Shown in pieces: positions 1 to 5,126 of a stretch of 5,126 nt of DNA (the stretch's first letter is position 1; every line of letters begins with the position of its first letter). The stretch is from Treponema sp. GTDB taxonomy: Bacteria; Spirochaetota; Spirochaetia; Treponematales; Breznakiellaceae. The stretch covers positions 1 through 5,126 of the forward strand of contig JAISBR010000078.1 in NCBI GenBank assembly GCA_031266095.1, in the 5' to 3' direction. The position numbers and the translations under genes are program-made. The notes under the pieces were generated by a model. The model was not told the origin of the DNA and made no database searches. It worked only from the letters and a program-made list of their open reading frames with translations.

Positions 1-1194
1 ACAGGTTACGAGAACACCTCCCGGAGCGAGGAGCTTGACCGCCCTCAGGTTAATCTCCTTGTAGCCCCGGATCGCCTGTTCCTGTATAGGCCGGGTTTTA
101 GCGAAGGCCGGCGGGTCCAATATGATAAGATCGTACTTTTTTTTGGCTTGTTCCGCGGTCCGGAGAAAATCGAAGCAATCCGCCTTCACCGTATCAACCA
201 GATCCGGAATACCGTTAAGGGCGGCGTTCTTCTTTGTCATTTCGAGAGCCGCCGCGGAAACATCTACCGCCGTTACCCGGACATCCAGGCCCCGGTCCAG
301 GGCGGATCTGGCGGCATGTATGCCGAAGCCCCCGGTATAGGCGCAAACATCCAGCGTCCGGCATACCGGGGAAAGACCGTCCGGATGTCCCGGAGCCTTG
401 TATCCCGCGTGCGCCGCATACCCCGCCGCGGCAAGGCGGTTTTCCCGCTGGTCCAGGAAATGCCCGGTCTTCTGCCCCTCCTCTGGATGGACCGCAAGGG
501 GAAGGCCGTTCTCAAATATCAGGATACCCCCGGCAGGGCAATCCCCCCGGATAAGCCCCTCTTTAAGGGGAAGCCCTTCAAGCTCCCGGACCCTGGCTGT
601 GGACTTTTCGACGATCCCCGCGAGGGAAACAGGGCCAAAGGACAGGGGGGCGCTCAAAAGTTCCTCCAGGGCCGCGAGGATTTCTTCCCGGCGCGTATCC
701 ATGCCGTAGATGAGGAACTGTACCGCAAGCCACGAAGCGGGAGGCCCCAGAACGGAGCGGACCGCGTTGAATGTGAGGGGCCGTTCGCTTATCCGGGCCT
801 CGGCGTCCGCCAAGGGCCAGCCTACAAAGCGGTCAACAATGAGCCCGGGGAGGAAGTCCGCCTCGGCAAAAACCATCCGGGCGGAGTCCCTGGACAGGTC
901 GTACCGGGTCCGGCGCGCAAAGGCTTCCCGGAACCGGCGCTTAAAAAAACCCTTGTCCAGCCCTTCCTTGGAAGGGCTGTAGATCCGGGCGATAATCTTT
1001 GACCGGGGGTTCACCAGAGCGCGGCCCAGGTATGTTTTTCCGGCGCTCTCTACGTCCGCCGTCTCCCCCGGCTCAAGTTCCGCCGGGCCGCCGCCGGCTC
1101 CATTGAGTATCCGCCCTACCTCGTTATCGTACACCCAGGGATGCCCCCGGATTATGCGCTTCTCTTCCCCGTTTTTCAGTATAATCCGTTTCAT
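1..1194 (-). CDS. rlmI: RlmI-like class I SAM-dependent 23S rRNA (cytosine-C5) methyltransferase, 3' end cut by window edge
   Basis: Reading the minus strand from an ATG at 1194 gives 398 codons with no stop, running off the left edge. The family (COG1092) transfers a methyl group from S-adenosylmethionine to a cytosine of 23S rRNA in the cytoplasm; E. coli RlmI acts at C1962. Residues 1 to about 75 form a PUA RNA-binding domain, with RGHPWVY at 16-22. A middle domain follows, then the family signature GQKTGHFLDQR at 240-250. SAM motif I is LDVCAYTGGFG at 281-291, and the catalytic-loop motif DPPAF is at 360-364. The last visible residues, GGVLVTC, align with the strand just before the SCS motif of E. 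coli RlmI, so roughly 50-60 residues are missing. A linker of about 15 residues (261-276) before motif I is not in E. coli RlmI. A good Shine-Dalgarno supports the start. Family membership is secure; the exact target base is inferred. Confidence 0.93.
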   Translation of the reverse strand, partial: MKRIILKNGEEKRIIRGHPWVYDNEVGRILNGAGGGPAELEPGETADVESAGKTYLGRALVNPRSKIIARIYSPSKEGLDKGFFKRRFREAFARRTRYDLSRDSARMVFAEADFLPGLIVDRFVGWPLADAEARISERPLTFNAVRSVLGPPASWLAVQFLIYGMDTRREEILAALEELLSAPLSFGPVSLAGIVEKSTARVRELEGLPLKEGLIRGDCPAGGILIFENGLPLAVHPEEGQKTGHFLDQRENRLAAAGYAAHAGYKAPGHPDGLSPVCRTLDVCAYTGGFGIHAARSALDRGLDVRVTAVDVSAAALEMTKKNAALNGIPDLVDTVKADCFDFLRTAEQAKKKYDLIILDPPAFAKTRPIQEQAIRGYKEINLRAVKLLAPGGVLVTC

Positions 1195-1199
1195 CAAAT

Positions 1200-1206
1200 C
1201 TTCCTT
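1200..1206 (-). promoter_or_regulatory. Shine-Dalgarno site of the rlmI-like gene
   Basis: The minus strand reads AAGGAAG here, five bases before the ATG at 1194 (seven from the AAGGA core). This is the best ribosome-binding site in the window and fixes the start. An ATG at 1211-1209 is out of frame and has no comparable site upstream. The site lies only about 30 bp downstream of the hairpin array in transcription order, so array folding could affect ribosome access. That effect is inference. Confidence 0.75.
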
Positions 1207-1234
1207 AACATGAATTCGATAGAATATCAGGGAT

Positions 1235-1395
1235 CCCGCTCCAAGCCTGACCCGGCGCCCGATCCAATGCTGATCGGGCTCCCGATCCAATGCTGATCGG
1301 GGTCCCGACCCAAGCCTGGTCGGGGTCCCGACCCAAGCCTGGTCGGGGTCCCGACCCAAGCCTGGTCGGGGTCCCGATCCAAGCCTGATCGGGGT
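1235..1395. repeat. Seven-unit, 23-bp tandem array of perfect inverted repeats (hairpin array)
   Basis: Seven units start at 1235, 1258, 1281, 1304, 1327, 1350 and 1373, exactly 23 bp apart. Each is a 7-base arm, a 7-base loop, a 7-base arm and a 2-base linker (mostly GT). Units at 1304, 1327 and 1350 are identical: arms CCCGACC and GGTCGGG, loop CAAGCCT. Units at 1258 and 1281 have arms CCCGATC and GATCGGG with loop CAATGCT. The unit at 1373 combines the GATC arms with loop CAAGCCT. The first unit (1235) is degenerate and its arms no longer pair. The array fills most of the 234-bp spacer between ppk1 and the rlmI-like gene, 35 bp from the ppk1 stop codon and 40 bp from the rlmI start. Since arms pair, the same stems form on either strand. 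No T-run follows on the minus strand, so it is not a classical Rho-independent terminator. It resembles REP-type extragenic palindromes in character, but I do not recognise the family. Confidence 0.95.
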
Positions 1396-1428
1396 CCGGA
1401 ATAAACACATAGGAATTTTCACCGGCGC

Positions 1429-3624
1429 TTATCCCGTGTCCTCGGCGGGAGGGCCTCGGCGGACCACGAACTCCTGTTTAAGCGCCCAAAGGTTTTCTAC
1501 TTCCCGGCCTGCCTGGGCGAGGAGGTACTCCTGGACCCGGAAGGGACTCTCCCCGGCAGGGGGGGCCCGGCGGGTCCAGCGGCCTTCGCTGTTCAGGAGC
1601 CAGGACTGGCAGTTGTCCCGGAAATAGGCTTCCATGATGGTCCTGAGCTGTTCCTGTATGTCCTCCTGAAACACGGGAAACATGAGTTCTATCCTCCGTT
1701 CCAGGTTTCTGGGCATCCAGTCCGCGCTGGAAAGGTAGAATTCCTCGGCCCCGGCATTGGCAAAATAGAAGACGCGGGAATGTTCCAGATAACGATCTAT
1801 CACGCTTACCACCCGGATGTTTTCCGAAAGACCCGGGAGGCCGGGAACGAGCATACAAATCCCCCGGATATTGAGCCGGATATTCACCCCGGCTTGGGAA
1901 GCCCGGTACAGAGCCTGTATGACATCCGGGTCCGCCAGGGAATTCATTTTCACCATGATACGGCCCGGATTTTCCCGGCTTGAACGTTTGGCCTCCCGGT
2001 CTATAAGCTCTATGAGCCGGTCTTTGAGGGCTATGGGGGCGATGACCAGGTTCCGCATGGAAGAGATTACCGAGTAGCCGGTGAGCATATTAAAGAGGAT
2101 GCCCGCGTCAAAGGCTATATCCTCCCGGGCGGTAAAAAGACATATATCCTCGTAAAGTTTTGCGGTCCTGGCATTGTAATTCCCTGTAGAAAGGTGGACG
2201 TAGCGCTTGACCCGGTCCTGTTCCCGGCGGATCACCACGCTGATCTTGCCGTGAACCTTGAGGCGGGCGAGACCGTACACCACGATCACTCCGGCCCGTT
2301 CCAGACGGTTGGCCCAGGAGATGTTCAGTTCTTCGTCAAACCGGGCTTTGAGCTCCACCAGGGCGGTTACATGCTTACCATTCAGGGCCGCCTCCTCCAG
2401 AGCCCGGATTATGGGCGAATCCCCGCCGGTCCGGTACAGGGCTGTCTTAATCGAAATAACCTGGGGGTCCGCCGCGGCGTCCCGGAAGAAACGCACCACC
2501 GAATCAAATGACTGATAGGGCAGGTGGAGCATCACATCCCCCCGGCTGATCCTGTCCCATATAGATTCATCCCCTGAAAAACCCGGAGCCGGATATATGG
2601 GCCGGTTTTTCTGTTTAAGCTGTTCAAACCCCCGGATCGACGCGAGATCCGCCAGGGTGCTAAGGTCCAGGGGGCCGTCAAGCTCATAGATGTCCTGGTC
2701 CTCCAACTCCAGCCGCCGGGCTAATTCATCTTTGAGAAACCGGCTGTTGGCGGAACAAACCATACATACCGGCCGGGAATTATCCCTGCGGACAAGTACC
2801 TCTTCCATGGCCTCTATGAAGTCTTCGTCCCTTTGTTCGTCCACCGAAAAATCGGCGTCCCGGTCGATTTTAAAGAGCATGTTTTCCCGGACCGTATATC
2901 CCGGAAAAAAGTAAGCCCCCCAGGTGAGGACCACATCGTCCAAAAGCGCCCAGGGCTCCTGTACAGCCCCCGGTTTGCCGGCGGAGGCCGTTTCCTGCCC
3001 GCCGTCTTTTGGGGGCAGCCAAATGATCCGCCCCAGCGCCGGGGGAATCTGGATGATCGCAATGAGAGGGGAGGCTGGTTCCGGCTTGGCCGCGCCGGAC
3101 GCTCTGTCTTCTGCGGGAATAGTATCCGCGGTTGGCTCCAGAAAAAAGGCGGCGTGCAGGAAAAGGCTTTTTATGGCGGGCGCTTCTTCTCCAAGTCTGA
3201 GGGGCGTCAGCACCGGGTAAATCTCTCTCATAAAAAAGGATTCGAGATGATCCATCTGGCTCAGGATATAGGAATCCGGCCGGACCAGTTCCAAACCGCC
3301 CCGTGCCAGGGCCGGGAAGATTTCGCCGCGCAGACATTCGTACTGAAGGCGCATGATGTCCCGGGCTTTTTCCGATACCAGCTTGAGCTGGGCTTCCGGG
3401 CTCAGTCCCGCGGGGTCCTTTTCCGGCCCCGTACCTGCCCGGAACGCGCGTTTCATGGCCGCCACCCGGACCATAAAAAACTCATCAAAATTGGAAGCGA
3501 CAATAGCCAAAAAACGGAACCGGTCCAGGGGCGGGAGATCCGTCTTGAGCCCTTCCTCTAAAACCCGCCGGTTAAACTCAATCCATGAGAGATCCCTGTT
3601 AAAAAAAATCGCTTTCTGTTCCAT
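1429..3624 (-). CDS. ppk: Polyphosphate kinase 1 (PPK1)
   Basis: The 731-residue product reversibly moves the gamma phosphate of ATP onto inorganic polyphosphate (EC 2.7.4.1). The family works as an oligomer, often membrane-associated. The N-terminal domain opens with FFNRDLSWIEFNRRV (7-21) and carries ASNFDEFFMVRV (43-54), including the conserved Asn45 near the ATP site. The head domain follows (about 110-330). The two phospholipase-D-like catalytic domains show LYRTGGDSPI (396-405), ELKARFDEE (424-432), LKVHGK with His458 (equivalent to the phosphorylated His435 of E. coli), YVHLSTGNYN with His477 (equivalent to His454), and RYLEHSRV with His615. All key residues are present, so it should be active. 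It is somewhat longer than E. coli PPK (688), partly through Ala/Pro/Gly-rich stretches at 165-186 and 207-224. The start matches the family N-terminus and lies 14 nt after the ppx stop, with a weak GGAAA site. The stop is TAA. Confidence 0.97.
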   Translation of the reverse strand: MEQKAIFFNRDLSWIEFNRRVLEEGLKTDLPPLDRFRFLAIVASNFDEFFMVRVAAMKRAFRAGTGPEKDPAGLSPEAQLKLVSEKARDIMRLQYECLRGEIFPALARGGLELVRPDSYILSQMDHLESFFMREIYPVLTPLRLGEEAPAIKSLFLHAAFFLEPTADTIPAEDRASGAAKPEPASPLIAIIQIPPALGRIIWLPPKDGGQETASAGKPGAVQEPWALLDDVVLTWGAYFFPGYTVRENMLFKIDRDADFSVDEQRDEDFIEAMEEVLVRRDNSRPVCMVCSANSRFLKDELARRLELEDQDIYELDGPLDLSTLADLASIRGFEQLKQKNRPIYPAPGFSGDESIWDRISRGDVMLHLPYQSFDSVVRFFRDAAADPQVISIKTALYRTGGDSPIIRALEEAALNGKHVTALVELKARFDEELNISWANRLERAGVIVVYGLARLKVHGKISVVIRREQDRVKRYVHLSTGNYNARTAKLYEDICLFTAREDIAFDAGILFNMLTGYSVISSMRNLVIAPIALKDRLIELIDREAKRSSRENPGRIMVKMNSLADPDVIQALYRASQAGVNIRLNIRGICMLVPGLPGLSENIRVVSVIDRYLEHSRVFYFANAGAEEFYLSSADWMPRNLERRIELMFPVFQEDIQEQLRTIMEAYFRDNCQSWLLNSEGRWTRRAPPAGESPFRVQEYLLAQAGREVENLWALKQEFVVRRGPPAEDTG

Positions 3625-3638: not shown

Positions 3639-5126
3639 TTACGCGAGAATCACCTTTAACCCGAATACATCCTGAAACAAATCGGCCTTTTCTTCCAACC
3701 CTATACGTTCAGGACTTAGATCGTAACTGTTCCCGGTATGGAGGACCACCGCCTCCGATTTCCGCTCCACTTCTATATCTTTGAGTATCTGGGTGTGGCC
3801 CCTGTCCAGGGCATCCGCCACTCTAAGCAAAGAAGCCATTTTGAGTACCAGAATACGCTCCTCCCGCTGAAGGGCGATGTAATGGATGTCTGTGGAAGAA
3901 GGAGGCTCGCCCCGGTGATAGCGGACCACGTTGGCGATAATGTCCAATTCTTCCCGGTGGAGGCCGAAAATCTCCGAATTGGCAATGATGTATTGACCGT
4001 GTATGTGGTGCCCGGACCCCCGGATAAACATACCTATATCATGCAGGATAGCCGCCGCTTCCAGCATCATCTTTTCCCGGCGGTTCATGCCGTGTTCCCG
4101 GCTCAGGGCGTCAAAAAGGATGAGGCAGAGATGGGCCACGTGGCGGCCGTGAAGTTCATCGTAATGGTACTTCCGGCCCAGATTTATCGCCGACGCAATG
4201 ATCTGTGAAAAGAATTCCTCCTGGAGTTCCCCGTCTACCCCAACCGTTAAATCTATGAGCAGTCCTTCCCGGATGGAAATATAGGGGACAACTACCTTAT
4301 CGGCAGCGGTCCGTTCCAGAAACAGCTTGTATACCAGGTTTCCCGGAACAAAACCTTCTGAATCCGCATAGGGGATGTGCAGCTTTTCAACGCACGCTTC
4401 GGGGCTGTAGTCCCGTATCTTTTCCACAAATTGAATATAGGCGTCCCGGTCTATAATGCGGCAATGTTCGTTGAGCTTCTCGCCGATACGGGTGGCCAGA
4501 TACCGGGCATCGGCGCCGGCCGTTACAAAGGTCCTGACCCGGGCCAATTCCATTTCCGCGTTGAGGAATTCCGTGGTGTTTCGTACGTTGTCGTTCAGAT
4601 ACCGGTTTTGAGACCACGCCGAGCCCAGCGCCCTCCGGGTCTGGCGGCCTATAAGGATAGTCCCCAGGCGCAGGCTGTGGGCCGCCGCCATCTTACCCCG
4701 CCGGAGGAGCATGATCTCCGTGGAACCGCCTCCAATCTCAATAATCATGGAATTAGCCCGCCAAAACCGGGGGAAATCATCTTGCAGGGCAAAGCGGACC
4801 GCCAGGTACATCAGGCGGTTTTCCTCTATCCCCTCGACAATGGTAAGGAGAAACCCCGTTTCCTGGTGGACCCGGTCTACAAAAATATCCCGGTTCTTCG
4901 CCGCTCTAAGGGCGCTGGTAGCGATTACATGGACATCCTCATCCGCTATACCCCAGCTTTTCAAAAGCTCCCGGAAACTTTGCAGTACCAGGAGACACTC
5001 CAGCATGGATTCCCGGGATACCTGCCCGGAAGTAAACACATCCCTCCCCAGGGTAACGGGCTTTCCCGCCTGATCCAGCATCCGCCAGGTTCCTTGAGAC
5101 ACGATTTCGGCTATCACGAGCCGGAT
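3639..5126 (-). CDS. ppx: Exopolyphosphatase / pppGpp phosphohydrolase (Ppx/GppA) with C-terminal HD domain, N-terminus cut by window edge
   Basis: This frame is open from the right edge and ends with TAA at 3641-3639; 495 residues are visible. The first visible residues, IRLVIAE, match the segment after the family's DxGSNS motif, so about 10-15 N-terminal residues lie outside. A GTG at 5117 could be taken as a start, but that would remove the first phosphate-binding motif and is rejected. Counting from the first visible codon, the actin-like phosphatase domain (1 to about 305) shows ATSALR (69-74), the acidic EGIEEN segment with the presumed catalytic glutamates (101-102), IEIGGGSTE (129-137) and SIREGLLIDL (284-293). 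The HD domain (about 320-495) shows His329, HD at 362-363, GHHIHG (372-377), RYHRG with His404, and RVADALD with Asp438. The enzyme removes terminal phosphates from polyphosphate (EC 3.6.1.11); GppA activity on pppGpp is also possible and cannot be separated by sequence. It lies directly upstream of ppk1. Confidence 0.94.
   Translation of the reverse strand: MRLVIAEIVSQGTWRMLDQAGKPVTLGRDVFTSGQVSRESMLECLLVLQSFRELLKSWGIADEDVHVIATSALRAAKNRDIFVDRVHQETGFLLTIVEGIEENRLMYLAVRFALQDDFPRFWRANSMIIEIGGGSTEIMLLRRGKMAAAHSLRLGTILIGRQTRRALGSAWSQNRYLNDNVRNTTEFLNAEMELARVRTFVTAGADARYLATRIGEKLNEHCRIIDRDAYIQFVEKIRDYSPEACVEKLHIPYADSEGFVPGNLVYKLFLERTAADKVVVPYISIREGLLIDLTVGVDGELQEEFFSQIIASAINLGRKYHYDELHGRHVAHLCLILFDALSREHGMNRREKMMLEAAAILHDIGMFIRGSGHHIHGQYIIANSEIFGLHREELDIIANVVRYHRGEPPSSTDIHYIALQREERILVLKMASLLRVADALDRGHTQILKDIEVERKSEAVVLHTGNSYDLSPERIGLEEKADLFQDVFGLKVILA

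What the first reader, a model, noticed from the sequence alone, without database searches (positions are those of the whole stretch)
1235..1395. Exact-period 23-bp hairpin array between ppk1 and an rlmI-like gene
Seven units repeat with no length variation, and six are perfect 7-bp inverted repeats around 7-nt loops. Ordinary intergenic REP elements are usually one or a few palindromes with variable spacing. This one is a strict tandem array. There is no T-tract, so standard termination does not explain it. Possible roles are an mRNA stabiliser or processing block separating ppx-ppk from rlmI, an attenuator tuned by copy number, or a multi-site target for a dimeric DNA-binding protein.
Basis: partly seen in the sequence, partly recalled or inferred. 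Interest (0 to 1): 0.72.

Follow-up and report, generated by a model that had tools for sequence, protein, structure and literature searches.

The report
Palindrome array kin to HU-like genes
A short DNA palindrome repeated seven times at an exact 23-base pitch in a Treponema-like spirochaete belongs to a repeat family that is often found right behind genes for an HU-like DNA-binding protein, so it may be a landing strip for such a protein rather than an RNA device.

Summary
In detail: seven units, strict 23-bp pitch, six with perfect 7-bp arms around 7-nt loops, no T-tract. It is not local. The same design recurs in other genomes of the order, the named ones being Treponema MAGs. A search that fixed only loop and pitch hit 33 of 390 genomes; arms differ between arrays but stay complementary. 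G.T and A.C arm mismatches balance in sum and motif direction ignores gene direction, so RNA function is unsupported. In relatives ppk1 and rlmI nearly touch (26 of 28 gaps -19 to +80 bp); here the array makes a 234-bp gap. Unexpectedly, such arrays often start just behind genes for DUF4469 proteins (HU/IHF-like plus Ig-like domain). Of 20 DUF4469 genes picked without regard to arrays, 18 had a 23-bp array at the stop codon, with mostly different palindromes; other genes: 3 of 1232. I read the window array as an orphan copy of DUF4469-linked site arrays. The link to DUF4469 is shown; binding is inferred. REP/RAYT elements and neutral slippage are the main rivals. The open papers searched describe nothing like it; a recalled 2017 paper on HU clades could not be read.

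The parts
1230..1397 (.). tandem array, 7.3 copies of a 23-bp palindromic unit (arm 7, loop 7, arm 7, spacer 2; equivalently arm 6, loop 7, arm 6, spacer 4)
   Evidence: TRF; repeat family; unit table
1235..1257 (+). unit 1, imperfect arms (5 of 7 pairs), loop CAAGCCT
1258..1303 (+). units 2-3, perfect arms CCCGATC/GATCGGG, loop CAATGCT
1304..1372 (+). units 4-6, perfect compensated arms CCCGACC/GGTCGGG, loop CAAGCCT
1373..1395 (+). unit 7, perfect arms CCCGATC/GATCGGG, loop CAAGCCT
1241..1387 (+). chain of seven copies of the family core CYARNSCTG at 23-bp spacing (up to 2 mismatches each)
1195..1428 (.). 234-bp ppk1-rlmI gap holding the array; -19 to +80 bp in 26 of 28 relatives with the pair close by
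1429..3624 (-). ppk1, polyphosphate kinase; its 3' end faces the array
   Evidence: NCBIfam
1..1194 (-). rlmI-like rRNA methyltransferase gene (runs off the window), downstream of the array
   Evidence: NCBIfam, (below the equivalog cut-offs); start agrees with relatives
3639..5126 (-). ppx-like exopolyphosphatase gene (runs off the window)
   Evidence: NCBIfam, (below the curated cut-offs)

Best explanation
The array is an orphan member of a family of tandem DNA palindromes with a fixed 23-bp pitch, found in genomes of one order of spirochaetes (the named ones are Treponema MAGs). The home position of such arrays is directly behind genes for DUF4469 proteins (an HU/IHF-like DNA-binding domain followed by an Ig-like domain). 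Shown: the recurrence, the pitch, the covarying arms, the conserved loop CYARNSCTG of the window's class, the lack of an overall RNA strand signature, and the adjacency of 23-bp arrays to DUF4469 genes. Inferred: each DUF4469 protein binds its own array as double-stranded DNA, about one dimer per 23-bp unit, bending it into a regular nucleoprotein stretch; orphan arrays such as the window's are copies that moved, expanded or outlived their gene and can still recruit the protein in trans, here between two genes that are tightly coupled in relatives.
For: Same unit (up to 2 mismatches) in 4 of 48 relatives' genomes, 3 with arrays; two-unit arm pattern in 10 of 390 order genomes, reversed control 0; loop-only three-unit pattern in 33 of 390 genomes, 667 overlapping places, reversed control 26 places in 8 genomes. 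In 51 arrays found without using the arms, arm pairs 2-4 are 63-70% Watson-Crick against permuted means of 28-39% and exceed all 1000 permutations; pairs 5-6 are above the mean but not the maximum. Same-strand core distances up to 40 bp: 23 bp 282 times, 24 twice, 22 once. In ten loci from ten genomes the array flank is the 3' end of a DUF4469 gene. Test: 18 of 20 DUF4469 genes chosen from the HMM list have a period-23 array at the stop codon against 3 of 1232 other ORFs of 200 aa or more. DUF4469 occurs in 30 of 33 core-array genomes and 142 of 357 others. 25 of 30 close DUF4469 relatives match the HU-DNA_bdg model at E 0.01. Similar proteins have similar arrays (Mantel r 0.49, p 0.004, 15 loci).
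Against: No DUF4469 gene or remnant was found in the window (one search scanned it), and most of the 69 collected arrays also show none nearby, so the protein link for this copy is by class, not by position. The window's genome is not held, so the presence of DUF4469 in it is unknown. 2 of 20 DUF4469 genes (L321, L335) and one in a random sample (L196) had no array; one of the 18 has only 1.9 copies (L331), and two pairs of the 18 come from close relatives. DUF4469 is in 142 genomes without the CYARNSCTG class; 7 of 9 such genes sampled have 23-bp arrays of other sequence. The HU match of the L124 protein is below Pfam's gathering score (22.9 of 30 bits), and the AlphaFold model is poor in that part. 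The protein-array correlation may be common descent. On the motif strand some arm pairs are skewed (pair 1: A.C 55, G.T 13; pair 3: 82, 21; pair 4: 13, 38). No binding data exist.
Confidence: 0.6

Rival explanations
1. REP-type elements: the palindromes are substrates of REP-associated tyrosine transposases (RAYT), which copy them between genes; tandem growth is secondary, as in BIME clusters.
For: RAYT (NF047646) over the cut-off in 12 of 20 array genomes and 4 of 20 others (two of the 16, G295 and G014, are placed by E-value and the tally); counts higher in array genomes (Mann-Whitney p 0.0006). Very high RAYT copy numbers in some (at least 127 matches in G199). In L288 the array's first core lies 82 bp behind the stop of a RAYT gene. 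Patchy spread over the PPK tree, 8 changes, at least 7 forced.
Against: 9 of 32 array genomes, among them the array-rich G020, give no match to the RAYT protein at E 1e-5, though MAGs often lack multi-copy genes. Apart from the two G199 loci no RAYT match at E 1e-4 lies on a fetched array locus. The conserved part is the loop, not a GTAG or CGTC tag at the foot of the stem (tags as in the title of PMC3733652). Isolated single cores are not enriched (195 against 269 for the reversed core). DUF4469 adjacency is far stronger. 3 of the 20 comparison genomes (G002, G003, G008) were tested only with the unit, not with the loop pattern.
Confidence: 0.15
2. A minisatellite without function: slippage expanded a small palindrome between ppk1 and rlmI.
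For: No 23-bp array at the same junction in the 28 relatives examined for the gap; arrays are internally homogeneous, as slippage gives; the same genomes are rich in unrelated 21-bp arrays; within-array pitch is kept by slippage anyway.
Against: Arrays with unrelated arms in different genomes share pitch and loop, and 23-bp arrays sit behind one gene family. Random slippage would not choose 23 bp each time. Arms covary across arrays. A functionless orphan copy of a functional family remains possible for this window.
Confidence: 0.17
3. An RNA device: hairpins in the ppk1-rlmI transcript stabilise or attenuate the message.
For: Perfect hairpins in a co-directional gene pair; the gap lies inside what is a tight pair elsewhere. 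Single arm pairs show G.T or A.C skews.
Against: No overall strand preference: weighted G.T 0.281 against A.C 0.285 per unit summed over pairs 2-6; in gene-sense orientation 36 against 27; sense 10, antisense 13; arrays also in convergent (11) and divergent (4) gaps; a terminator-like hairpin stands before the array in L332. No Rfam family reaches its threshold in the window.
Confidence: 0.08

Closest known systems
REP / BIME / REPIN elements with RAYT transposases
   Same: short extragenic palindromes, many per genome, orientation-free, can form tandem clusters (recalled); RAYT genes are common in several array genomes
   Different: conserved loop instead of a conserved tetranucleotide tag, strict 23-bp tandem pitch, no excess of isolated copies, association with DUF4469 rather than RAYT genes
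Iterons and centromere-like site arrays (Rep/iteron, parS/parC)
   Same: tandem sites of about two helical turns beside the gene of the presumed binding protein (recalled)
   Different: here the unit sequence differs from locus to locus while the pitch stays, the arrays are in many places of the genome, and lie behind the gene; binding unproven
HU/IHF-like proteins with an Ig-like domain (PF14848 + PF14734; PDB 4fmr)
   Same: protein family next to the arrays; 4fmr matches profile positions 58-244 (E 1.1e-7)
   Different: no paper with the word DUF4469 is in the library searched; Burroughs et al. 2017 on HU clades is recalled only and was not held
Integron gene cassettes (gene followed by attC)
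   Same: gene followed directly by a palindromic DNA site
   Different: tandem 23-bp units instead of one attC site; no integron integrase was looked for; attC features recalled

Membership tests
DUF4469-linked 23-bp palindromic arrays (proposed here) | exact 23-bp tandem pitch of a palindromic unit | tested here: met
DUF4469-linked 23-bp palindromic arrays (proposed here) | core CYARNSCTG in the loop (the class to which the window belongs) | tested here: met
   window 1241-1387, chain of seven cores
DUF4469-linked 23-bp palindromic arrays (proposed here) | DUF4469 gene immediately in front of the array | tested here: not met
   window genes are ppk1 and rlmI-like; no DUF4469 hit in the window. 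It is therefore called an orphan of the class, not a gene-linked member
REP / RAYT | 20-40 bp extragenic palindrome, many copies per genome | tested here: met
REP / RAYT | GTAG or CGTC tag at the foot of the palindrome | tested here: not met
   no conserved tetranucleotide in the spacer or arm ends; 116 different spacers in 649 units
REP / RAYT | RAYT gene in the genome and near the repeats | tested here: inconclusive
   over the cut-off in 12 of 20 array genomes; near an array only in G199
Intrinsic terminator | GC hairpin followed by a run of T | tested here: not met
   no T-tract behind the array on either strand, read by eye
CRISPR | repeats separated by unique spacers of 25 bp or more | tested here: not met
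   spacers of 2 nt
Known RNA family (Rfam 15) | score above the gathering threshold | tested here: not met
   four weak microRNA-model matches, all below threshold
Iteron | bound by the protein encoded next to it | not testable with these tools
   needs binding assays

The most novel reading that the evidence does not exclude
DUF4469 proteins and their 23-bp palindromic arrays are matched pairs: each protein copy diversifies together with its own fixed-pitch landing array, so one treponeme carries many orthogonal HU-like protein/array pairs, and orphan arrays such as the window's are docking sites spread through the chromosome, for chromosome organisation or for marking self against foreign DNA.
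Probability: 0.35. Interest if true: 0.85.

Novelty: new variant of a known kind. Interest (0 to 1): 0.7.

Why it matters
It gives DUF4469 proteins, whose domain Pfam lists as of unknown function, a likely DNA target that can be read straight from the sequence behind the gene and tested in a simple binding assay. A DNA pitch that is held while the sequence drifts would mean that spacing, not base sequence, is what selection or the copying machinery keeps, which is unusual for protein-site pairs. It would also give a reason for part of the many intergenic arrays in these genomes, several of which lie at contig ends.

Tried and rejected
RNA function was tested by the G.T/A.C balance and by orientation and dropped. 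DNA-uptake-like signals: the core is not enriched outside arrays. A coding repeat: 23 is not a multiple of 3, so all frames are used. A phage or plasmid origin: the exact unit in viral contigs 0; the array in plasmids no match; the exact three-unit core in one viral stretch only; DUF4469 relatives in viral contigs none by two peptide patterns. RAYT was followed and kept as a rival. The 3'-end preference of arrays (convergent 11, divergent 4) is not significant against baseline gaps (p 0.27). Of ten neighbours of DUF4469 loci scanned in Pfam, five match families, all different, and five match none. The AlphaFold model was poor (mean pLDDT 51.6, HU part mostly under 50) and was not used. A 163-165 aa family beside 21-bp arrays could not be followed.

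Limits: the 20 DUF4469 genes of the test were hand-picked from the best-scoring part's list (several genomes; two from G001 because it is near the window), without looking at arrays; they are not a formal random sample. Of 69 arrays, 18 came in through the arm pattern (or are the window), so the arm statistics were repeated on the other 51. For orientation only 38 of the 69 arrays had a called gene on both sides. ORFs were called by a simple script, not by a gene finder. The control ORFs come from other loci than the test genes, and one DUF4469 gene was taken out of that count. Absence of RAYT or DUF4469 in a MAG is weak evidence. That the MAGs come from termite guts is recalled from their isolate codes; no call states it.

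Full report
What is in the window. The + strand carries, at 1230-1397, 7.3 copies of a 23-bp unit with no indels. Seven units start at 1235 and every 23 bp after that; six have perfect 7-bp arms around a 7-nt loop, and three of the seven carry a compensated arm change. Shuffled windows never come near this (200 shuffles, best TRF score 53 against 217). The genes, all on the minus strand, are ppx-like, ppk1 and rlmI-like. The nearest ppk1 relatives are Treponema MAGs at 78-79% identity. No genome is held for the window itself.

The array is an addition. In 28 relatives with ppk1 and rlmI within 3 kb the gap is -19 to +80 bp in 26 and 1.7-2.5 kb in two; here it is 234 bp. TRF found no 23-bp array in any of the 80 ppk1 loci; L031 has a 21-bp array behind ppk1.

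It is a family. The window's unit with up to 2 mismatches is in 4 of 48 relatives' genomes, three of them with arrays. Arms at 23-bp pitch, any loop: 10 of 390 genomes of the order, reversed control 0 (one of the ten, G103, has a different loop). These genomes also hold 23-bp arrays with other arms, several with a similar loop. I therefore searched for three loops CYARNSCTG at 23-bp pitch with the arms left free and up to 1 mismatch: 33 of 390 genomes, 667 overlapping places, against 26 places in 8 genomes for the reversed pattern. In a sample of 247 genomes of the phylum there was none (reversed pattern 2 places). From the fetched DNA I collected 69 different arrays with 649 units.

The arms covary. 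In the 51 arrays that were not found through their arms, arm pairs 2, 3 and 4 are Watson-Crick in 63, 67 and 70% (array-weighted), against permuted means of 33, 39 and 28% and permuted maxima of 55, 57 and 47% in 1000 trials; pairs 5 and 6 (44 and 58%) exceed the mean (27 and 40%) but not the maximum (47 and 63%). The pitch is nearly absolute: same-strand cores lie 23 bp apart 282 times, 24 bp twice, 22 bp once, and at no other distance up to 40 bp; isolated cores (195) are rarer than isolated reversed cores (269). Part of the pitch lock is trivial, since tandem growth keeps the pitch within an array; that it is shared by arrays with unrelated arms is not.

DNA rather than RNA. Summed over pairs 2-6 with arrays weighted equally, G.T and A.C mismatches on the motif strand are equal (0.281 and 0.285 per unit). 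Single pairs are skewed, in opposite directions (pair 3: G.T 21, A.C 82; pair 4: 38 and 13), and pair 1, which the search motif constrains, has more A.C (55 against 13); so the balance is of the whole, not of each pair. In gene-sense orientation an earlier count over 23-bp arrays gave G.T 36, A.C 27. Motif strand against co-directional neighbours: 10 sense, 13 antisense; convergent 11, divergent 4; 31 of the 69 arrays lacked a called neighbour on one side or both. The convergent/divergent split does not differ from baseline gaps (p 0.27). Spread on the PPK tree is patchy: 8 changes for 10 positives among 40 scored rows, at least 7 forced by well supported branches, shuffled mean 9.

The gene behind it. 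Comparing the flanks of the 69 arrays showed homologous right flanks in ten loci from ten genomes: the 3' end of a gene for a DUF4469 protein, with a weak HU-DNA_bdg match in front. In the fetched DNA I count 22 different DUF4469 genes or remnants by HMM (duplicates removed by hand); 21 have a 23-bp array within about 130 bp of the last homologous residue (three units only at L291), L196 has none. Most of these loci had been fetched because of their arrays, so this is biased; of the three in random samples, L157 and L169 have arrays and L196 has none. A fourth, short tblastn match in a random sample (L147) is a C-terminal remnant followed by a single unit CCGATC-AGGCTTG-GATCGG and no array. 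In 14 of 17 linked pairs the motif runs antisense to the gene (p 0.013; counted by hand; several pairs are orthologous). The window's array has the same direction relative to ppk1.

The test. From the DUF4469 matches I took 20 genes without regard to arrays and fetched up to 800 bp behind each. 18 of 20 have a period-23 array at or within 150 bp of the stop codon: 11 of 11 in core-array genomes and 7 of 9 in others, among them both DUF4469 genes taken from G001, the genome of the window's second-nearest relative in the tree. Most palindromes differ; L317/L320 and L318/L319 are pairs from close genomes, and some others share a theme (L330/L333; TCAAA..TTTGA in several of L322-L327). L331 has 1.9 copies. 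Without a 23-bp array: L321 and L335. Control: 4 of 1233 ORFs of at least 200 aa in sampled loci have a 23-bp array within 130 bp, and one of the four is itself a DUF4469 gene, so 3 of 1232 (Fisher p 3e-35). Over the 390 genomes, DUF4469 is in 172; it is in 30 of the 33 core-array genomes (not in G046, G230, G269) and in 142 of the 357 others (p 7e-9). Similar proteins go with similar arrays (15 loci, Mantel r 0.49, p 0.004), which common descent alone could give.

The protein. All 30 close relatives aligned match DUF4469 and 25 match HU-DNA_bdg at E 0.01; the only clear solved relative is 4fmr, an uncharacterised protein. Of ten genes around DUF4469 loci that I scanned, five match families, all different, and five none, so gene plus array looks like a free-standing module. 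In L332 an intrinsic-terminator-like hairpin with a T-run stands between the gene and the array, which speaks for DNA-level use.

Reading. The window array is a copy of the CYARNSCTG class away from a DUF4469 gene. The simplest mechanism is that DUF4469 proteins bind these arrays as double-stranded DNA, one dimer or so per unit, and that orphan arrays are extra docking sites or relics. This last step is inference. REP/RAYT biology is a real rival: RAYT genes are more frequent in array genomes and one array lies 82 bp behind a RAYT gene, but 9 of 32 array genomes show no match and the conserved loop does not fit REP tags.

Literature. Searches in open PMC text for termite Treponema repeats, palindromic arrays, DUF4469 and T. 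denticola repeats gave no description of these arrays (listings and starts of abstracts seen only). A 2017 paper by Burroughs and colleagues on HU/IHF clades, recalled, may treat the HU-Ig clade; it is not held, so prior mention cannot be excluded.

Noticed in passing
random contig samples of G235, G020, G094, G192 and G275 (L137-L216) and L026, L027, L029, L031, L033, L034, L042, L046, L071: Many intergenic-looking arrays of exactly 21 bp (or 42) with unrelated sequences; in G192 24 arrays of any period of 12-60 bp in 168 kb. A second fixed-pitch class beside the 23-bp one.
   Followed up: partly
L198:321-818 (-) and L199:208-699 (-): Two related 163-165 aa proteins with no Pfam family above its cut-off stand 185 and 23 bp before arrays of period 42 and 21; relatives in 7 of 10 genomes. 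Possibly a second protein-array pairing.
   Followed up: partly
G199, G321, G110, G075, G146, G275: RAYT-like transposase genes in unusually high number: at least 127 matches in one 2.2-Mb genome (those of G146 and G275 are weak), well above the few copies that I recall as usual.
   Followed up: partly
L090:1107-1560 (G020:C200): 138-bp tandem element (6 x 23) that contains single copies of the 23-bp hairpin next to the array itself.
   Followed up: no
L131, L147, L291, L299, L312: Only C-terminal or broken pieces of DUF4469 genes were found next to the arrays, and at L147 next to a single unit, so palindromes seem to outlive their genes; the window's orphan array could have arisen this way.
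   Followed up: partly
L317-L320 (G091, G204, G111, G107; single contigs of 2.7-2.9 Mb): Imperfect 23-bp arrays behind DUF4469 genes in genomes without the CYARNSCTG class.
   Followed up: no
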